From Leifsonia xyli (lineage in GTDB: Bacteria > Actinomycetota > Actinomycetes > Actinomycetales > Microbacteriaceae): 64,000 nucleotides of DNA. Below the pieces are notes generated by a model, which was not told the DNA's origin, searched no databases, and saw nothing but the letters and a program-made list of their open reading frames with translations. The stretch is taken from positions 186,001 through 250,000 of the forward strand of contig CP014761.1 in the NCBI GenBank assembly GCA_001647635.1, written 5' to 3'. A program made the translations under genes and the position numbers. Of the stretch, positions 30,198 to 39,580 are shown piece after piece (position 1 is the stretch's first letter; each line of letters starts with the position of its first letter).

Positions 30198-31232
30198 ATG
30201 ACCGAGGACAGTTCATCCCGGCCGCCCACCCCACCCGCGGCGGCGACGCCTCCGGTCGGGGCGCAGCCGTCGGGGGCTCCGTCCCGCCGGGCCAAGCCGC
30301 GGTCGCGCGACGAGCTGCGGGCGCAGGTGCAGGCCACGCGCGCCGACTTCGAGCGCCAGGTGCAGGCCCGCAAGGCGCAGCTGGATGCGACCAACGAGCG
30401 CATCGCGGCGCGCACCGGCCGCAATCTGATCCTGGCCATCGTGATCGGCGTGGCGGTCGGGGCGGTCGTCGTGGTCAGCCTGATCTTCATCAAGCAGCTG
30501 TTCCTGGTGTTCGGCATCGCCATGATCGGCTTCGCCGCCTTCGAGCTGGCGCAAGCGTTCCGCGGCGCCGGGCGGCGGGTGCCGCGCATCCCGACGGTGG
30601 CGGCCGCGGTAGGGATCGTGCCGGCCGCCTTCTATCTGCACGCCGGCGGACAGCTGGTGGCGCTTTCGGCCGGCATCGTCCTGGTGGTGCTGTGGCGACT
30701 GGTGGAGCTCGTCGTCCCGGCCGGGCGAACGGGTCCCAAGGCGCTGGGTCTCGACCTCCTCTGGTCGGTGTTCGTCCAGCTGTACGTCACTCTGCTCGGC
30801 AGCTTCGTCATCCTGCTCCTCGCTGAGGACGGGGGCGAGTGGTGGGTGCTGGCGTTCCTCATCCTCGTGGTGTCGGTGGACACCGGCGCCTACGTGAGCG
30901 GGCTGTCGTGGGGCAAGCACCCGATGGCGCCGACCATCAGCCCCAAGAAGACGTGGGAGGGGTTCGCGGGCGCGAGCGCGGCGGCGATCATCGCGGGCAT
31001 CCTGCTCGCGGTGTTCATGATCGGCGAGCCGTGGTGGTTCGGCATCCTCTTCGGCGTCGTGGTGCTGCTGACGGCGACGGCAGGCGACCTGGCGGAGTCG
31101 CTCATCAAGCGCGACCTGGGCATCAAGGACATGAGCTCGTGGCTGCCCGGCCACGGAGGGTTCCTCGACCGGCTCGACTCCATCCTGCCGTCGGCAGCGG
31201 TCACGTACGTGCTGTTCCTCATCTTCCGATGA
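30198..31232 (+). CDS. cdsA: Phosphatidate cytidylyltransferase
   Basis: CdsA makes CDP-diacylglycerol, the precursor of anionic phospholipids. The 344-residue protein starts with a Pro-rich, then charged cytoplasmic region of about 75 residues. About eight membrane segments follow. The signature near the C-terminus reads SLIKRDLGIKDMSSWLPGHGG then DRLDS. SPKKTWEGFAGA is also typical. The stop overlaps the ATG of the next frame. Confidence 0.95.
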   Translation: MTEDSSSRPPTPPAAATPPVGAQPSGAPSRRAKPRSRDELRAQVQATRADFERQVQARKAQLDATNERIAARTGRNLILAIVIGVAVGAVVVVSLIFIKQLFLVFGIAMIGFAAFELAQAFRGAGRRVPRIPTVAAAVGIVPAAFYLHAGGQLVALSAGIVLVVLWRLVELVVPAGRTGPKALGLDLLWSVFVQLYVTLLGSFVILLLAEDGGEWWVLAFLILVVSVDTGAYVSGLSWGKHPMAPTISPKKTWEGFAGASAAAIIAGILLAVFMIGEPWWFGILFGVVVLLTATAGDLAESLIKRDLGIKDMSSWLPGHGGFLDRLDSILPSAAVTYVLFLIFR

Positions 31233-31789
31233 CAGAATGGGGGCGTGAGCACCTTCCCCGCAACCCCAAGTCCCAGCAGGGGTACGACGTCGAGCAGGTG
31301 GATGAGTTCCTCCTCACCGCACGCCGCGCGTACGACGGCGACGAGTCGGCGCCCGACCTGACGGCGGCGGACATCCGGCACACGGCCTTCGCGATGCAGA
31401 AGGGCGGCTACTCGACCACGCACGTCGACGCGGCCCTCGAACGCCTGGAGGACGCCTTCGCCGCCCGGGAGCGGGACGCGGCACGGGCACAGGCCGGAGA
31501 CGCCGCCTGGTTCGAGGACGCGCGCACCACGGCGCAGGTGGTCCTCAATCGGCTCGACCGCCCGCTGGGGCACCGGTTCGACCGTGTCAGCATCCTGACC
31601 CTCGGGTACAACCGCAACGACGTCGACCGTTTCGCGAACCGTCTGGTGCGCTACTTCCAGGACGGCCGGCCGATGAGCGTCGAGGAGGTTCGGACGGTCA
31701 CATTCCGTGAGCAGCGCGGCGGATATCGCGAGGTCCAGGTCGATCTGCTGCTCGACGCCGTCACCGACGTCATGCTGGCGGTTCGCTGA
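31229..31789 (+). CDS. DivIVA-domain repeat protein, start uncertain
   Basis: The 186-residue frame holds four DivIVA-type motifs of the form GY-x4-VD: GYDVEQVDEFL, GGYSTTHVDAALERL, GYNRNDVDRFANRL and GGYREVQVDLLLDAV. This matches the actinobacterial DivIVA-repeat family, whose role is unknown. The frame can start at ATG 31229, overlapping cdsA. A better family-like N-terminus (V-S-T-F-P-R-N) starts at GTG 31245 in another frame, 6 nt after CAGAAT at 31233-31238. It joins only if one C is added to the run at 31256-31259, so a sequencing deletion is suspected. Confidence 0.75.
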   Translation: MTEWGREHLPRNPKSQQGYDVEQVDEFLLTARRAYDGDESAPDLTAADIRHTAFAMQKGGYSTTHVDAALERLEDAFAARERDAARAQAGDAAWFEDARTTAQVVLNRLDRPLGHRFDRVSILTLGYNRNDVDRFANRLVRYFQDGRPMSVEEVRTVTFREQRGGYREVQVDLLLDAVTDVMLAVR

Positions 31790-31805
31790 GTGCGGGGGCG
31801 GAATC

Positions 31806-31834
31806 TTGGGTTTTCCGGCGATCTCCGTTATCGT
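31806..31834 (+). promoter_or_regulatory. Promoter of the transglycosylase-like gene
   Basis: TTGGGT at 31806-31811, a 17-nt spacer and TATCGT at 31829-31834 give a well-spaced promoter immediately upstream of the GTG starts at 31838 and 31844. Confidence 0.4.
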
Positions 31835-31837
31835 TCT

Positions 31838-32557
31838 GTGATCGTGGGTAGACGAGCAGCTGAAGCGGAGATCGTACCGCTGACTCCGGCCAACCCGGTC
31901 GGGGTCGCGTTCAAGCGATCCAGGCGTCCGCATGTCCGTTCGCGTGCCGCCATCGCGGGCTTCGCCTTCATCGCCGTGGCCGGGTTCGCCCTGGTCAACG
32001 TCATCGACCCGTTCTCGGGCACGACGACCACGCCGGCGTATGCGGAGTCGCTGCAGCAGATCCCGACGACCCAGCGCTACGAAGGTGCGCCCGCCCAGGA
32101 GCTGACGGCTCCGGATGCCCCGGCGCAGACGATCACGCGCGAGGCCGTCTCGGTGAAGGCCAAGCCCACCCCGACTCCGACGCCGACCCCCACCCCGACG
32201 GCATCGAAGAAGTCGTCCTCGTCCTCGTCCTCGGGCAACAGCAATCCGACCGCGCCGATCCCCACCGCCGGTACCGCGCGCGACCTGGGTTACCAGATGA
32301 TGCAGGCGCGCGGCTGGGGCGACGACCAGTGGGGCTGCCTCGACTCGCTGTGGAGCCGCGAATCCGGCTGGCGCGTGAACGCCTCCAACCCCAGCGGCGC
32401 GTACGGCATCCCGCAGGCCCTTCCGGGCAGCAAGATGGGCCCCGGATGGGAGACCGACGCCTCGGTGCAGATCAACTGGGGTCTCGGCTATATCGCCGGC
32501 CGCTACGGCACCCCGTGCGGCGCCTGGGCGCACTCCGAGTCCTCCGGCTGGTACTGA
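31838..32557 (+). CDS. Secreted lytic-transglycosylase-like protein
   Basis: From GTG 31838 the 239-residue product has a cytoplasmic basic N-terminus, one hydrophobic segment (AAIAGFAFIAVAGFALVNVI) acting as an uncleaved or cleaved signal, a Pro-Thr repeat and poly-Ser linker, and a C-terminal domain. The domain has CLDSLWSRESGWRVNASNPSGAYGIPQALPGSKM, the catalytic Glu being in SRESGW. It resembles SLT-type domains that cut peptidoglycan glycan strands and is a common actinobacterial wall protein. GTG 31790 and GTG 31844 are alternative starts. Confidence 0.85.
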   Translation: MIVGRRAAEAEIVPLTPANPVGVAFKRSRRPHVRSRAAIAGFAFIAVAGFALVNVIDPFSGTTTTPAYAESLQQIPTTQRYEGAPAQELTAPDAPAQTITREAVSVKAKPTPTPTPTPTPTASKKSSSSSSSGNSNPTAPIPTAGTARDLGYQMMQARGWGDDQWGCLDSLWSRESGWRVNASNPSGAYGIPQALPGSKMGPGWETDASVQINWGLGYIAGRYGTPCGAWAHSESSGWY

Positions 32558-33633: not shown

Positions 33634-34671
33634 CTACAGCTCGTTCTGCCGCGGGATCACGACCTGCTTCACGATCAGCAGGATGGCCGCGGCGAACGGG
33701 ATGGCGACGAGCGCGCCGAGGATGCCGAGCAGCGTGCCGCCCGCGAGGGCCGCGACCACGACCAGGGCGCCGGGCACGGACACCGCGCGGTTCATGATGC
33801 GCGGGCTCAGCACGTACGCCTCCACCTGCATGTAGATCAGGTAGTAGATCGCGGCGGCGATCGCGGTCGGCGTCCCGGAGAGGAAGCAGGCCGCCACGAT
33901 GATGACCGAGCCGGTGATGGTTCCGACGAGCGGGATCAACGAGAAGAAGAACGCGATCGACGCGAGCAGGATGGGGAACTTCGCGCCGATCACCGTCAGG
34001 AAGATCGCGCTGAGCACGCCGTTGACGAGAGCGAGCGACACCTGGCCCATGACGTACTTGCCGACCGAGTCGGTGATCTGGTCTCCGATGTCGGCGAAGC
34101 GCGCGCGCCGGGAGGCGGGGACGAGCTGGTACGCCGACCGCTTGATGCTCGGCAGCGACGCGGTGAAGTAGATGGTCAGGATGATCACGATGATGACGCC
34201 GAAGAGGCCCTGGACGATCCCGACGCCGGTCTGCAGCACCTTGGAGGTGATGTCCGGCAGGTTCTGCTGCAGCCACTGGGTGACGGCGTCGATGTTCTGC
34301 TGATTGACGATGCCGGGGAACTGGTGCTGGAGGCTGAGGAACCACTTCTCCGCGTCGCCGTTGTTCACCCAGTTGATGGTGTTCTGCACCAGCTGGGAGG
34401 CCTGGTCGACGGCGATCGGCACGATCGCCCAGATCAGGCCGACGAAGGCCCCGATGATGACGACGAGGGCTACCACGAGCGCCAGCCAGCGCGGGAAGCG
34501 CCGACGCTCGAGGAAGGAGATCAGCGGCTCGATGCCGAGCGCCAGGAACAGCGCGGCACCGATGTAGGTGATGATCGTGGCGAGGCTGACGATGGCGCTC
34601 AGGATGAGCAGACCCAGGCCGACGCCGAGGACGCCGATGAGACCGAGGCGGAACGGGTTCTGGATCTTCAC
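33634..34671 (-). CDS. AI-2E family transporter (permease)
   Basis: This 345-residue membrane protein has about eight hydrophobic segments and the family pattern. ITYIGAALFLALGIEPLISFLERR is followed by a large polar loop after the third segment, GKYVMGQVSLALVNGVLSAIFL, FFFSLIPLVGTITGS and a C-terminal ALVAIPFAAAILLIVKQVV. Members include the E. coli TqsA type and Na+/H+ antiporter-like proteins, so the name does not prove autoinducer export. The GTG start has AGGGGGAA upstream. It lies 15 nt after the coiled-coil gene on the same strand and may be its operon partner. Confidence 0.88.
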   Translation of the reverse strand: MKIQNPFRLGLIGVLGVGLGLLILSAIVSLATIITYIGAALFLALGIEPLISFLERRRFPRWLALVVALVVIIGAFVGLIWAIVPIAVDQASQLVQNTINWVNNGDAEKWFLSLQHQFPGIVNQQNIDAVTQWLQQNLPDITSKVLQTGVGIVQGLFGVIIVIILTIYFTASLPSIKRSAYQLVPASRRARFADIGDQITDSVGKYVMGQVSLALVNGVLSAIFLTVIGAKFPILLASIAFFFSLIPLVGTITGSVIIVAACFLSGTPTAIAAAIYYLIYMQVEAYVLSPRIMNRAVSVPGALVVVAALAGGTLLGILGALVAIPFAAAILLIVKQVVIPRQNEL

Positions 34672-34686: not shown

Positions 34687-37521
34687 TCAGTCGCGGTCTG
34701 CGGTCACCTTCTCGGCCTGCTGCAGGACGCCCCGGAGGTTCTCGAAGTACCCGGCCACGGCCTCACGCTCGATCCTAATCTGGGCCAGGCGCTCCTCGGC
34801 GTCGGCGACCAGGCGTTGCGTGCGCTCTTCGGTCTCGGCCAGAAGCGCGTCGGAGCGCTCCTCGGCGTCCCGGATGATCGCGGCCGCCGTGTCCTCGGCC
34901 TTCTTGCGGGCCTCGGTGACGGTGCGCCGGGCTTCGGTCTCGAAGGCCTCCGCCTCGGAGCGGGCCTGCGCGGTGCGCTTGACCGCGTCCGCCAGCTGGA
35001 CGTTCGCCTCGTCGAGGTACTTCTGCGTCTGGGCCACGGCCTCCTGGTGGCGGGCGAGGTACTCCTTCTCGGCCTCGTCGCGGCGGGCGCGGAGCTCGAC
35101 GTCGAGGTCGATGCGGGCCTGCTCCATCTCGCGCGTGCGCGCATCGACCTCCTCGAGGGTGGTCGTGCGGAGAGTCGTCAGCTCGGTGTCGAGCGCCGCG
35201 CGGGCGCCGGCGGCCTCCTGCTCGAAGGCGGCCGTGCGCTCGGCGAGCTCGGCCTCCAGGGCGGTGCGCGCCTCGGCGACCTCGCGGGCGAGCTCCGCGC
35301 GCGCCTCGGCTGTCTCCTTCTCGAGGGCGACCCGGGTCTGCTGCGCCTCGTCGGCGATCGTCAGGCGCGAGCGCTCCGCCTCGCGCTCGAGCTCGAGGCG
35401 CTGCTGCTCCCGCTGGTCGGCGAGCTCGTTCGCGGTCGCCTCGCGCTTGTCGGCCAGGTCGGTGGTGGTGTTCCGGATGTCCTCGGCGAGGCGGCTGCGC
35501 GTCTGGTCCGACTCGGCGGCGAGTGCGCTCTTGGTCTGCGCGACCTCGGCCGCGAGGGCCTTCTTGGTCTGCTCGACCTCAGCGACCAGCGCCGACTTCG
35601 TCGTCGTCACCTCGGTCTCGAGCGCGGACTTCGTCTGCTCGACCTCCGCGGCGAGCTCCGCCTTGGTCTGCTCGACCTCGGCGGCCAGCTCGGTCTGCGT
35701 GCGCGCGACCTCGTCGGCCAGGGCGGCCTTCGTCGTGGTGACCTCGGCTTCGAGCGCCTTCTTCGTCTGCTCGACCTCCGCCGCGAGGGCCGCCTTGGTC
35801 GTGGTGACCTCCGTCTCCAGGCTCGACCGGGTCTGCTCGACCTCGGCGGCGAGGGAGGTGGTGGTCGACTCGACCTCGGCGGCGAGGCGCGCGCGGCCCG
35901 CGGTCAGCTCGGCCTCGACGGCGCTGCGTTCGCGGGCGATCTCGTCGGCCAGCGCCGAGCGGGCGGTGTCGACTTCGGTCGCGAGCTCCGCTCGGAGGTC
36001 GGCGGCCTCCGCCTCCAGCTCGCGGCGCTGGCGCTCGGCGTCCGCGGCCAGGCGGGCACGGGTCTGCTCGACCTCGGCAGCCAGTTCGCTCGCGGTCTGC
36101 TCGCGGTCGGCGGCCAGCTGAGCGGCGGTTGCGGCTCGATCGGCCTCCAGGGCCGTCCGGGTTTCGGTCGTCTCCTTCTGGAGCGTGGTCCGCGTCTGCA
36201 GCACGTCGTCGGCGAGCTGCGTGGTGGTGCGCTCGACCTCTTCCGCGAGGGCGGTCTTGGTCGTGGTGACCTCGCTCTCGAGCGCGGCACGGGTGGAGGT
36301 GACCTCGTTCTCCAGGGCGGACCGGGTGGTGGCGACCTGCGTCTCGAGCTCCGACTTCATGCGCGACACCTCTTCGGCCAGCGCCGAACGGGTGCGGGTG
36401 ACCTCGTCGGCGAGCTCCGCCTTGGTGCGCTCCACCTCGTCCGCGAGCGCGCTGCGGGTCGTGGTGACGTCGGCCTCGAGCGCGGATCGCGCCTGCTCCA
36501 CCTCGGCGGCGAGGGCGGACTTCGTCTGCTCGACCTCGGCGGCGAGGGACTTGGTGGTCTGCTCCACCTCGGTCGCGAGCGCCAGCCGGCGCGTCTTCTC
36601 CTCGTTCTCGAGATCGGCGCGGGTCTGCGCCGCGGCGGCGGCGAGCTCCGACCGCTGCTCCTCGACCTCGGCGGCCAGGTCGGCGCGGGCCTGCGCGGCC
36701 TCGGCGGCGAGGGCGTTGCGCGTCTCGGCCTCCTCTGCGGCGAGGCGGTCGGCGGTCTCGGCGACGCGACGGTCGAGCTCCAGGCGGGTCTGGGCGGCCT
36801 CGCGCTCGAATGCCGCGCGGTCCTCTGCCAGCGCGTTCTCGAGCTCGGCCCGACGGGAGGCGATGGTCCGGTCGAGTTCGGCGGCCTCGGCGCGGGCGGC
36901 CTCCGCCTCGCGGGAGGCCACGGCCTTCAGCTCGGCGGCCTCGCGGTCGGCCTCGGCTCGCACCGCCGCGGCCTCCCGCTTGCTCGTCGCGCGCAGCTCC
37001 GCCGCCTCGGTGGCGACGGCGCCGCGGATGGCGGCCGCCTCGCGCATGGCGTCGTTGAGCAGGGTCTCCTTGTCGGCCCGGGTCTTGGTGAGCAGCTCTC
37101 CCGACTCGATCTGCGCATCCTCGAGCAGCGTCGTGGCGCGCGCCTGGGCGTCGGCCAGGATGCGCTCGGCCTGCGCGGCCGCGGCCTTCTTGACCTTCTC
37201 GATCTCGGCGGCCACGCCCGCGCGCAGCTTCTCAGCGTCGATGTCGGCCTGGGCGATCAGGCGGGTGGACTGCTCCTCGGCGACCCGGAGGGTGTTCTCG
37301 AGCTTCGTGCCGAGCCCGGAGTACGTCGGGCTGCCGACCTCCTCGATCTCGGCGTTGAGGTCGTCGATGCGGGCCTGCAGCCGCTTGATCTCCTTGGCGG
37401 AGTCGGCCGCCTTGGTGTTGGACGCGATCAGCTCGCGACGCAGCTCCTGCAGCGCCTTGTCGACCTCGTCCTTGTCATAGCCGCGGAAGGCCTGCGTGAA
37501 GGTGGATTCGTCGGTGGCCAC
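34687..37521 (-). CDS. Giant DivIVA-like coiled-coil protein with hendecad repeats
   Basis: This 944-residue cytoplasmic protein begins with a DivIVA-like motif (TFTQAFRGYDKDEVDKALQEL, about 7-27) and a heptad coiled coil. Residues 224-795 are 52 uninterrupted 11-residue repeats of the type KSALAAEVEQT, with hydrophobic residues at repeat positions 4 and 8 and Thr or Ala at 11. A further charged coiled coil with several AEER-type segments ends the protein. The layout recalls the Streptomyces polarity proteins Scy and FilP, but the repeat differs. CAGGAG precedes the GTG start. I infer a cytoskeletal or polar scaffold in cell growth or division. Confidence 0.85.
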   Translation of the reverse strand: MATDESTFTQAFRGYDKDEVDKALQELRRELIASNTKAADSAKEIKRLQARIDDLNAEIEEVGSPTYSGLGTKLENTLRVAEEQSTRLIAQADIDAEKLRAGVAAEIEKVKKAAAAQAERILADAQARATTLLEDAQIESGELLTKTRADKETLLNDAMREAAAIRGAVATEAAELRATSKREAAAVRAEADREAAELKAVASREAEAARAEAAELDRTIASRRAELENALAEDRAAFEREAAQTRLELDRRVAETADRLAAEEAETRNALAAEAAQARADLAAEVEEQRSELAAAAAQTRADLENEEKTRRLALATEVEQTTKSLAAEVEQTKSALAAEVEQARSALEADVTTTRSALADEVERTKAELADEVTRTRSALAEEVSRMKSELETQVATTRSALENEVTSTRAALESEVTTTKTALAEEVERTTTQLADDVLQTRTTLQKETTETRTALEADRAATAAQLAADREQTASELAAEVEQTRARLAADAERQRRELEAEAADLRAELATEVDTARSALADEIARERSAVEAELTAGRARLAAEVESTTTSLAAEVEQTRSSLETEVTTTKAALAAEVEQTKKALEAEVTTTKAALADEVARTQTELAAEVEQTKAELAAEVEQTKSALETEVTTTKSALVAEVEQTKKALAAEVAQTKSALAAESDQTRSRLAEDIRNTTTDLADKREATANELADQREQQRLELEREAERSRLTIADEAQQTRVALEKETAEARAELAREVAEARTALEAELAERTAAFEQEAAGARAALDTELTTLRTTTLEEVDARTREMEQARIDLDVELRARRDEAEKEYLARHQEAVAQTQKYLDEANVQLADAVKRTAQARSEAEAFETEARRTVTEARKKAEDTAAAIIRDAEERSDALLAETEERTQRLVADAEERLAQIRIEREAVAGYFENLRGVLQQAEKVTADRD
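35137..36852 (-). repeat. 52 tandem degenerate 33-bp units encoding hendecad repeats
   Basis: The stretch is exactly 1716 bp, 52 units of 33 bp, each encoding one 11-residue repeat with no insertion or deletion. The most regular units read KAALADEVART, KSALETEVTTT and KAELAAEVEQT. The units are diverged at the DNA level, so they are under protein-level selection and are not a recent minisatellite. Confidence 0.85.
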
Positions 37522-37711
37522 TGTTGTTACTCCTGGGGATGTTCGGGTCGACCCGCCTCACGCGCGCCGCGACGATCCTACAATTCGCGGGTGTACGCCC
37601 GCACGGGGGGTGCCGAAAGCGTCCAGGCAAGGGTTAGCTGCCTTTCAGGCATGTCCGGTATCGTCGTGTGACTGTGCCCGCCCCCGAACTTCGGCACATG
37701 AGGAGTCCTGC

Positions 37712-39580
37712 TTGCGTTTCGTACTCGCCATCGTCGCGTTCGTCGTCGCCGCGGTCATGATCGTGGCCGGCATCGCGCAGCGCACCGTCTTCGCGCCGCC
37801 GACCCGCATCGAGGCCGGCGCGACCGTCTCCGGAGACCCGCGTTACCTGGTGATCGACGGCTCCGCGCTCAACGCCCACCCCGGGCAGCAGACCCTGACG
37901 ATCTCTGACGCCCCCGCGGGCGCCACGCCGGTCGTGGCTTACGGCCGTACAGCGGACGTCAAGGCGTGGCTCGGCGACCAGAAGTACGTCGCCGTGCGCT
38001 ATCAGAAGTCCACCGGTGACCTGACGACGAAGGCCGTGACGCCGAAGCCGACCGCGTCGAGCAGTGAGGAGTCGAGCTCCACCGCGACGCCGGCTCCCAC
38101 TCCGACGCCCGCCGCGACGGCGGGTGCGACCACCGGGTCGTCGACCGCCGCGACCGCGGGGCCCAACCCGGCGGGCTCGGACCTCTGGCTCGAGGAGTTC
38201 GACGGCGAGGCCGCCCAGGTCACCCGCATGAACATCCCGGACGACGTGAGCGTCATCGTCGCCACCGACGGCACGAAGGCGGCGCCGTCGCGCCTCACCG
38301 TGACGTGGCCCGTCGACTCCAGCACGCCGTGGGCCTTCCCGCTCATCATCGGCGGGCTCATCCTCCTCGTCATCGGCATCGCCCTGTACCTCTGGGGCCT
38401 GTACACCCACCGCCGCTCGCGCGGCCCGCGCCGCAAGAGCGGCCCGAAGATGCCGAAGCTTCCCAAGGCCCCCAAGTACAAGCCCACCGCCATGATCGAG
38501 ACCACCCCGCGAGGCCGCCGTTCCAGCCGCCGCGCCCGCGTCATCCTGCCCGTCGCCGTGGCCGGCGCCCTGGCCCTCACCGGCTGCACGACCGGCACGG
38601 ATGCTGCCACGACGCCGTCGAAGACCGCGACCCCGCTCGCGACGGAAGCGCCCGACGCGCAGGGGCAGCTGCCGCCCGCCGTGACGGTTCCGCAGCTGGA
38701 GCGGATCGTGAAGCGCATCTCGGATGCGGCGGCACAGGCCGACGCCAAGGCCAGCCCCGACCTCGCCAAGGCGCGCTTCACGGGCCCGGCGCTGCAGCTC
38801 CGCACCGCGAACTACGCCATCCGCGCGAAGAAGGCCGACGAGCCGGCGCTGCCCGCCATCCCGGCGAGCCCGATCGTGCTCTCGCTCCCGCAGGCGACCG
38901 ACGCGTGGCCGCGCACTGTCGCCGCCGTCATCGACAGCCCCAAGGACGCGAAGGGCAACGCCCAGGCGCCCATCGCGCTGACGCTCGTGCAGGCGACGCC
39001 GCGCGACAACTACCAGGTGGAGTACGCCGTCTCGCTCGAGCCCAAGGCCAAGGTGCCGAACCTCGCACCGGCGAGCATCGGCTCCGCGGTCGTCCCGCCG
39101 GACTCGAAGCTGCTCGCCCTCCCGCCGGAGAAGGTGGCCGCGGCGTACGGCGACATCCTGATGAACGGCGACAAGAGCCAGTACGCGAGCCTGTTCAGCG
39201 CGGAGGGCGACACCCTGCGCACCCAGGTCGGCGCCGACTGGAAGGCCAAGCAGAAGGCGGCCGTCCCCGCTACGGCGTCGCTGACGTTCACGAGCGCGCC
39301 CGGTGACGGCAAGGACGTCGCCATGGCGACCAACGACTCCGGTGCGATCGTCTGGACAGACCTTAAAGAGTCGCAGGTGCTGAAGGTCGTTGAGGCGGGC
39401 GCCGAGGTGAGCGCCGGTGCGACCGCTGCCGCGCTCAGCGGGGTCGCGTCTTCGAAGACCGGCATCCAGTCCGACTTCGGCTACCAGCTCGCCTTCTACG
39501 TGCCGCCGGCGGGTTCCGACGCCAAGATCACCCTGCTCGGGTTCGCGCAGGGCATGACCTCGGCCGAGCAGATCCCGTAA
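37712..39580 (+). CDS. Membrane protein fused to a lipoprotein-like domain, function unknown
   Basis: From TTG 37712 (GAGGAG upstream) the 622-residue frame encodes a membrane segment at about 3-22, an extracytoplasmic domain with a Thr/Ser/Pro-Ala linker, and a second membrane segment in WAFPLIIGGLILLVIGIALY near residue 210. A very basic cytoplasmic loop follows. Then comes a typical lipoprotein signal, RVILPVAVAGALALTGC, in the middle of the protein, and an exported domain of about 320 residues with an FSAEGDTL segment. No family is recognised. An in-frame ATG near 38493 (M-I-E-T-T-P) could start the lipoprotein half separately. Confidence 0.7.
   Translation: MRFVLAIVAFVVAAVMIVAGIAQRTVFAPPTRIEAGATVSGDPRYLVIDGSALNAHPGQQTLTISDAPAGATPVVAYGRTADVKAWLGDQKYVAVRYQKSTGDLTTKAVTPKPTASSSEESSSTATPAPTPTPAATAGATTGSSTAATAGPNPAGSDLWLEEFDGEAAQVTRMNIPDDVSVIVATDGTKAAPSRLTVTWPVDSSTPWAFPLIIGGLILLVIGIALYLWGLYTHRRSRGPRRKSGPKMPKLPKAPKYKPTAMIETTPRGRRSSRRARVILPVAVAGALALTGCTTGTDAATTPSKTATPLATEAPDAQGQLPPAVTVPQLERIVKRISDAAAQADAKASPDLAKARFTGPALQLRTANYAIRAKKADEPALPAIPASPIVLSLPQATDAWPRTVAAVIDSPKDAKGNAQAPIALTLVQATPRDNYQVEYAVSLEPKAKVPNLAPASIGSAVVPPDSKLLALPPEKVAAAYGDILMNGDKSQYASLFSAEGDTLRTQVGADWKAKQKAAVPATASLTFTSAPGDGKDVAMATNDSGAIVWTDLKESQVLKVVEAGAEVSAGATAAALSGVASSKTGIQSDFGYQLAFYVPPAGSDAKITLLGFAQGMTSAEQIP

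What the first reader, a model, noticed from the sequence alone, without database searches (positions are those of the whole stretch)
34687..37521. A 944-residue DivIVA-like protein with 52 perfectly phased 11-residue repeats
Residues 224-795 are 52 consecutive 11-residue units (572 residues) with no insertion or deletion, in the pattern R/K-x-x-L-A-x-E-V-x-x-T. Hendecads favour a straight or slightly right-handed coiled coil, and 572 residues would be a rod of about 85 nm. The DivIVA-like N-terminus suggests attachment to a curved membrane or the cell pole. Streptomyces Scy/FilP are analogues, but their repeat differs. An AI-2E-family permease gene follows directly on the same strand.
Basis: partly seen in the sequence, partly recalled or inferred. 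Interest (0 to 1): 0.75.

Follow-up and report, generated by a model that had tools for sequence, protein, structure and literature searches.

The report
Giant FilP-type rod protein in Leifsonia
This is a long rod-shaped protein of the known FilP cell-skeleton family, whose relatives differ greatly in length but change mostly in whole 11-residue steps, giving a natural set of rods for testing how rod length shapes the bacterial cytoskeleton.

Summary
The ORF (minus strand, 944 aa) carries 52 consecutive 11-residue units at residues 224-795 without an indel. The genome is Leifsonia-type (Microbacteriaceae). The protein is not merely analogous to Scy/FilP: profiles of its head and of its C-terminal motif both match one Streptomyces-type FilP lying beside a Scy-like gene. 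I file it as a FilP-family member with an expanded rod. FilPs of very different length, and Scy with over 1000 mostly hendecad residues, are already published. What I met in no paper seen is how length varies. In 122 distinct relatives the head-to-tail span takes 59 values (349-1111 residues), yet 120 fall in three of eleven classes modulo 11. In 13 chosen near pairs, 18 of 19 gaps are multiples of 11 and one is 7. The non-repeat arms show 1 pairwise gap in 18,148 aligned residues, against 0.57-12.6 per 1000 in five neighbouring genes. So phase looks constrained, while rod length is free in some lineages and frozen in others. Between families the rule weakens. A pole-linked dimeric scaffold is the best reading; localisation and function are untested.

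The parts
34687..37521 (-). FilP-family coiled-coil protein, 944 aa, GTG start
37530..37534 (-). AGGAG, probable ribosome-binding site
   Evidence: by eye
37339..37521 (-). DivIVA-like head, residues 1-61: short helix 5-11, RGYDKDEVD motif, helix 17-61
   Evidence: TIGR03544 over cut-off; 2wuj alignment; helices in both models; best period 3.53, not above the shuffle maximum on its own
37315..37338 (-). hinge, residues 62-69 (VGSPTYSG), non-helical at 62-69 in one model and 62-67 in the other
   Evidence: conserved in alignment A1
36853..37314 (-). N-terminal arm, residues 70-223, Ala-rich hendecad-like helix of fixed length
   Evidence: V20-R166 distance is 146 in 115 of 122 relatives, +7 in 3, unmapped in 4
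35137..36852 (-). 52 hendecads, residues 224-795, the length-variable rod
   Evidence: varies in relatives
34810..35136 (-). C-terminal arm, residues 796-904, fixed length
   Evidence: E816-F926 distance is 110 in 117 of 122; 105 in one with a weak mapping score, unmapped in 4
34711..34809 (-). conserved C-terminal motif, residues 905-937
   Evidence: A3 profile, found in 80 of 149 genomes of the order and in Streptomyces-type FilP
33634..34671 (-). AI-2E-family permease, 15 bp downstream, probably co-transcribed
   Evidence: PF01594 E 2.5e-56; 52 of 53 loci
31229..31789 (+). PolyDIV-type protein with four DivIVA-like GY motifs; neighbour in the same conserved locus
   Evidence: TIGR03543 E 7.7e-65; 52 of 53 loci; start and motif count by eye

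Best explanation
It is a FilP-family, intermediate-filament-like cytoskeletal protein. Shown by sequence: a DivIVA-like head, a hinge, a very long hendecad repeat and a conserved C-terminal motif; head and C-terminal motif homologous to Streptomyces-type FilP; length changing in relatives mostly by whole hendecads. Inferred: two chains dimerise in parallel through the head and form a nearly straight two-stranded rod of about 134 nm. The hydrophobic head tip (F12, the DivIVA F17 position) and contact with the DivIVA/Wag31 pole scaffold hold it near growing poles. Rods assemble laterally through the rod and the C-terminal motif into a stiffening meshwork. Rod length changes by gain or loss of 33-bp units, probably by unequal recombination within the repeat. 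Selection removes most changes that would break the helix phase between head and tail.
For: Head: TIGR03544 over cut-off; exact RGYDxxEVD motif (definition from PMC9858780); DivIVA 2wuj E 2.3e-4 with F12/R13 on F17/R18, chain 2wuk having A in place of that F; that position is F, L, M or V in 121 of 122 relatives. FilP homology at both ends: profiles A2 (E 1.1e-12) and A3 (E 1.3e-6) match the same 312-aa protein, beside a 1244-aa Scy-like ORF. Rod; no Pro after residue 69 and 2 Gly in residues 224-795; position 1 carries net +42 and position 7 net -44 on opposite flanks of the L/V/T seam, as for inter-helix salt bridges. Phase: 120 of 122 relatives in three length classes; arms 1 pairwise gap in 18,148 aligned residues against 0.57-12.6 per 1000 in five neighbours; in 13 chosen pairs 18 of 19 gaps are multiples of 11, one is 7. 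Function from papers: FilP localises near hyphal tips, forms filaments without cofactor, 37-nm rod (PMC6599971, passages); three FilP-family proteins of different architecture form filaments (PMC2680258, passages).
Against: No direct evidence of dimerisation, filaments, polar localisation or membrane binding for this protein. Pfam DivIVA is below its gathering score (23.5 of 28). AlphaFold models are low confidence (mean pLDDT 66.5 and 66.9; pTM 0.30 and 0.26) and monomeric; the first has helix gaps at 330-345, 351-354, 366-371 and 678-691, the second at 143-147. Streptomyces-type FilP has R, not F, before RGYD. The neighbourhood differs from the filP-scy locus, where a thiolase lies beside the Scy-like ORF. 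20 of 120 family genomes gave no match. Two further weakly matching family members (G106, G214), outside the 122, are in classes 1 and 5.
Confidence: 0.72

Rival explanations
1. The quantised lengths are only a by-product of DNA repeats: unequal recombination in a 33-bp repeat changes length in 33-bp steps, and neither length nor phase is selected.
For: 33-, 66- and 132-bp tandem structure in the gene. The 15 proteins of the length-variable Leifsonia clade carry exact internal repeats of 25-77 bp, the 40 of fixed span 499 only 10-28 bp, as expected if exact repeats drive change, though longer genes also have more chances. Gaps fall inside the repeat.
Against: The non-repeat arms are almost free of indels (1 pairwise gap in 18,148 residues) while neighbours are not. 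The 40 proteins of span 499 have mean unit identity 0.47-0.59, like the 0.52-0.55 of the Leifsonia clade, yet one length. Most class shifts are to 4 and 7, which keep a coiled-coil seam. It may still be the mutational half of the best explanation.
Confidence: 0.25
2. The repeat is a lipid-surface helix like apolipoproteins or perilipins, coating membranes or storage granules.
For: Pfam Apolipoprotein E 8.7e-24, 84.7 bits, and apolipoprotein chains in the PDB search; a 1030-aa relative, L014, scores 90.1, just over the cut-off of 90; Thr at a core position in 33 of 52 units.
Against: The window protein is under Pfam's cut-off. Strongly acidic (75 K/R against 128 D/E in the repeat), narrow hydrophobic seam, one flank positive and the other negative. 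The DivIVA-like head and the FilP C-terminal motif point elsewhere.
Confidence: 0.06
3. It is a second DivIVA/Wag31-type pole organiser rather than a FilP rod.
For: DivIVA_Wag31 model matches residues 13-247, E 5.8e-7; F17-R18 equivalents kept.
Against: Wag31 score 29.7 against a cut-off of 260; the genome has a separate, better DivIVA match at G000:C1:880797-880904 (E 2.1e-14) in a 300-residue open frame; the C-terminal motif is that of FilP.
Confidence: 0.1

Closest known systems
FilP (Streptomyces coelicolor SCO5396; actinobacterial rod-domain family)
   Same: RGYD head, hinge-like stretch after the head helix, conserved C-terminal motif; hendecads and wide length variation in the family (PMC9858780, PMC2680258)
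   Different: 944 against 312 aa; 52 uninterrupted hendecads; F rather than R before RGYD; no second FilP-type gene found in the genome; different neighbourhood
Scy (Streptomyces)
   Same: Over 1000 residues, almost entirely hendecads (PMC9858780)
   Different: Scy starts at the RGYD motif without the short N-terminal helix (PMC9858780) and is a second gene beside filP; here the complete head is present
DivIVA / Wag31
   Same: Head domain and F17-R18 loop of B. subtilis DivIVA
   Different: A separate DivIVA is encoded in this genome; rod and tail unlike it
PolyDIV (window 31229-31789)
   Same: Same DivIVA-like superfamily, same conserved locus
   Different: Four head motifs in about 186 residues, no long rod

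Membership tests
FilP/Scy group | RGYDxxEVD motif before a coiled-coil helix, R before GYD (PMC9858780) | tested here: met
   RGYDKDEVD at residues 13-21; RGY in 121 and RGF in 1 of 122 relatives
FilP/Scy group | heptad coiled coil right after the motif | tested here: inconclusive
   residues 17-61 best period 3.53, power 7.0 against shuffle maximum 7.2
FilP/Scy group | rod with extended hendecads | tested here: met
FilP/Scy group | Ala-rich core, as expected for dimeric hendecads | tested here: inconclusive
   Ala is the commonest residue of the repeat (133 of 572), but the seam positions are L, V and T
FilP | homology to FilP beyond the head | tested here: met
   C-terminal profile A3 matches a Streptomyces-type FilP, E 1.3e-6.
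FilP | short helix before the motif (absent in Scy) | tested here: met
   helix 5-11 in both models, low confidence
FilP | gene near methylmalonyl-CoA epimerase or crotonyl-CoA reductase (some clusters only) | tested here: not met
   none among the nine neighbouring proteins scanned between 31.1 and 45.9 kb; not a trait of all FilP
FilP | cofactor-free filament assembly and location near growing tips | not testable with these tools
   bench work needed
Scy | starts at the RGYD motif, next to filP | tested here: not met
   12 residues precede R13; one FilP-type gene found in the genome
DivIVA_Wag31 (NF050102) | score over 260 bits | tested here: not met
   29.7 bits
Apolipoprotein (PF01442) | score over 90 bits | tested here: not met
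   84.7 bits; relative L014 reaches 90.1

The most novel reading that the evidence does not exclude
FilP rods are heritable molecular rulers with an 11-residue quantum. The helix phase between head and tail is under strong purifying selection, so each gained or lost hendecad moves the tail about 1.6 nm without turning it. Lineages then set and fix their own standoff distance or mesh period: 40 distinct proteins of the Agromyces, Cryobacterium and Microterricola groups share one length, ten genomes of another family share one, six of a third share one, while Leifsonia and others change length nearly species by species. Long Scy-like rods would have evolved several times from short FilPs without gene duplication.
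Probability: 0.25. Interest if true: 0.7.

Novelty: new member of a known kind. Interest (0 to 1): 0.45.

Why it matters
FilP assembly models link rod length to filament banding. This family offers natural rods of about 52 to 165 nm (349-1111 residues) with related heads and tails and mostly the same helix phase, so whether rod length sets band spacing, mesh size or cell stiffness becomes a direct comparison. It is also a case where the indel spectrum reveals a structural constraint that residue conservation hides.

Tried and rejected
Apolipoprotein-like lipid helix: disfavoured on charge pattern, score and homologous ends. Wag31 paralogue: disfavoured on score and on a separate Wag31. Scy orthologue: rejected because a full head is present. 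Phase tracking with a 52-unit profile suggested phase shifts near window residues 212 and 850; since that profile differs from the Ala-rich arms, I do not claim real breaks there; the Fourier angle lies between about 37 and 129 degrees up to residue 873 and jumps in the last window, 863-917. The large protein database gave only 5 hits for the head and was not pursued. An MreB search in the genome found one 65-bit match in a 654-residue frame, which could be an Hsp70; the model also matched 12 of 14 control genomes, so nothing is concluded.

Rows dropped: 13 of 143 sequences (10 cut off by short loci, whose 10 genomes were fetched again; L118, L120 and L126 for weak C-terminal score, which one search had put in classes 4, 4 and 1). 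130 were kept, 122 after removing identical cores. Of 100 family genomes with a match I examined 77; the 23 left out have E of 3e-27 or weaker, and one of them, G106, with a second genome of its genus, G214, turned up in odd classes. In one search, 61 N/C pairs were used (7 in the family, 54 of the 105 genomes outside it with a head match); matches whose C-terminal part stopped short of profile position 59 or lay on another contig were left out. The pairs were chosen by me after seeing the spans, and one of the 13 (L011/L014) has no gap.

Full report
What is there. The ORF at 34687-37521 lies on the minus strand and encodes 944 aa. Residues 224-795 are 52 consecutive 11-residue units. In-phase signature positions score 139 of 156; the best of 2000 shuffles over all phases is 47. 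The hydrophobic period is 3.667 residues, 11/3. Only 9 of 52 units match the whole consensus, so the phase is perfect and the sequence is not. The unit puts L, V and T (positions 4, 8, 11) on one narrow seam, with a net positive residue on one flank (position 1, +42) and a net negative one on the other (position 7, -44). That fits a parallel two-stranded coil better than a lipid-facing helix.

Rest of the protein. Residues 1-61 form a DivIVA-like head (TIGR03544 over its cut-off) with an exact RGYDxxEVD motif. Alignment to the DivIVA structure 2wuj places F12 and R13 on F17 and R18; the companion chain 2wuk carries A in place of the F. F17 is reported as the membrane-tip residue in B. subtilis DivIVA and as not conserved in actinobacterial DivIVAs (PMC4285798, passages). 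In the relatives here the position is F in 73, L in 25, M in 21, V in 2 and R in 1 of 122. A hinge (62-69) and a helix to the C-terminus follow. The last conserved stretch, about residues 905-937, is a family signature. Two AlphaFold models agree on head helices 5-11 and 17-61; the one built on four ungapped equal-length sequences has a short break at 143-147 and then a single helix 148-943; the one built on 15 sequences has low-confidence gaps in the repeat. Both are monomer models with pTM of 0.30 and 0.26, so they support helix, not quaternary structure.

Family. 53 loci in GTDB contigs (Leifsonia, Cryobacterium, Agromyces, Humibacter and others of Microbacteriaceae) encode relatives. The locus is conserved: the upstream ORF and the thioredoxin-TPR gene in 53 of 53, the AI-2E permease and the PolyDIV gene in 52 of 53. 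Among 120 family genomes 100 have a match to residues 1-100. With a profile of the head, 113 of 149 genomes drawn from the order and 104 of 197 from the class match; the weaker of these matches may be other DivIVA-like proteins. One class-level genus with genomes of 6-10 Mb has open frames of about 320-420 residues at the match; in the one genome I read closely (G281, locus L194) a 312-aa ORF lies beside a 1244-aa Scy-like ORF, and head and tail profiles both match the 312-aa protein; a second genome (L195) gives the same pair of matches and a 1289-residue frame. The window protein is therefore a FilP-family member.

Length. Between fixed points in the head (V20) and the tail (F926), 122 distinct relatives show 59 different spans, 349 to 1111 residues. 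Modulo 11, relative to the window, 71 are class 0, 43 class 4, 6 class 7, one class 8 and one class 10. 59 lengths need at least 58 changes on any tree; on a tree made from the arms alone the minimum is 62 changes of length and 7 of class (quick tree with some long uncertain branches). In 13 near pairs that I chose there are 19 gaps: 18 of 11, 22, 33, 44 or 66 residues and one of 7, the last in the pair L096/L139, which is also a class 0/4 pair (MAFFT with a raised gap penalty, and gap places inside repeats are arbitrary). For three of the six class-7 members the extra 7 lie between V20 and R166 (L116, L123, L124; a 7-residue insertion in the head of L123 is visible); the other three could not be mapped.

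Why phase is probably selected. Repeats of 33 bp make 11-residue steps mutationally easy, so quantisation inside the repeat is not proof of selection. The control is the arms: residues 8-211 and 797-935 show 1 gap in 18,148 aligned residues over 53 loci, each compared with the window, while five neighbouring genes show 116 in 17,916 (AI-2E, 52 orthologues), 7 in 12,256 (hydrolase, 51), 79 in 9,441 (PolyDIV, 48), 206 in 16,361 (thioredoxin-TPR, 52) and 53 in 14,555 (cdsA, 45). These are pairwise gaps, not independent events. The hydrolase is itself indel-poor (0.57 per 1000), about ten times the rate of the FilP arms. Length is another matter. 40 distinct proteins of the Agromyces, Cryobacterium and Microterricola groups all have span 499; 15 of the Leifsonia-Diaminobutyricibacter clade range 840-994. 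The fixed group has shorter exact DNA repeats (10-28 bp against 25-77 bp) at similar mean unit identity, so a mutational cause of the difference is not excluded.

Limits of the rule. Outside the family, by profile-to-profile distance, 10 of 10 genomes of one family have one length, 6 of 6 measured of another (9 had a head match) have one length, and 10 of 10 genomes of a third have ten lengths, 779-1145 (the same measure gives 926 for the window). In those 54 non-family pairs the classes are 8 (31), 7 (9), 1 (4), 10 (3), 3 (3), 9 (2), 4 (2). So the rule weakens between families while it holds within most of them. Within the family, two weakly matching genomes of one genus, G106 and G214, fall in classes 1 and 5, and 23 of 100 matching family genomes were not examined beyond that.

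What it does. FilP of Streptomyces localises close to hyphal tips, forms striated filaments without cofactor, and has a 37-nm rod; loss of filP gives crooked hyphae (PMC6599971, passages). FilP-family proteins from Streptomyces, Janibacter and M. bovis with different rod architectures all form filaments (PMC2680258, passages). FilP orthologues are described as very widespread in actinobacteria, in a survey whose genome set includes Leifsonia xyli (PMC4255298, passages); whether that species was scored for FilP there I did not see. By homology the window protein is most likely a pole-linked scaffold with a rod of about 134 nm from head to tail (906 residues at 0.1485 nm, a textbook rise, recalled). 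Polar location and stiffness are inferred.

Novelty. Length variation of the FilP/Scy group (under 200 to over 1000 residues) and hendecads in FilP and Scy are in PMC9858780 (introduction passages, and Results and Discussion in full); the words Leifsonia and Microbacteri- do not occur in its main text. Searches for hendecad with DivIVA, hendecad with bacteria, FilP with Scy, coiled-coil indels in multiples of seven, FilP orthologues, Microbacteriaceae with DivIVA (no paper) and Leifsonia with FilP listed no paper whose title or shown abstract start reports stepwise hendecad length variation; some searches listed only part of their hits, most listed papers I did not open, and subscription papers are mostly not held. 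Selection against indels in coiled coils is known elsewhere, for example in synaptonemal complex proteins (PMC8598163, passages). I therefore call the protein a new member of a known kind, with a comparative pattern that I did not find in print as the point of interest.

Noticed in passing
window 31229-31789 (+): A PolyDIV-type protein (TIGR03543) with four DivIVA-like motifs, starting at the end of cdsA and near pyrH. PMC9858780 describes PolyDIV and its UMP-kinase neighbourhood. Two DivIVA-superfamily genes within 6 kb, kept together in 52 of 53 loci.
   Followed up: partly
window 31790-32557 (+): Protein with an aggregation-promoting-factor C-terminal domain (NF052397), probably secreted, found in 52 of 53 loci.
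   Followed up: no
window about 37634-39580 (+): Divergent ORF with no Pfam match at E 0.001, yet present in 53 of 53 loci; by eye a membrane segment followed by a lipoprotein-like part, possibly two genes in one open frame.
   Followed up: no
L119, L137 and L207: FilP-type rods longer than the window's in other lineages: spans 1111 and 1064 in the family and a profile distance of 1145, against 926 for the window, in another family. Giant rods may have arisen more than once.
   Followed up: partly
L107 and L114: The only two of 122 relatives in odd length classes (10 and 8); L107 also maps with a C-terminal arm of 105 instead of 110 residues, at a weak score. They may show a relaxed phase or a wrong anchor.
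   Followed up: no
genomes G106 and G214 (same family, one genus): Weak head matches with a conserved C-terminal match in length classes 1 and 5; possibly a diverged FilP of another type.
   Followed up: no
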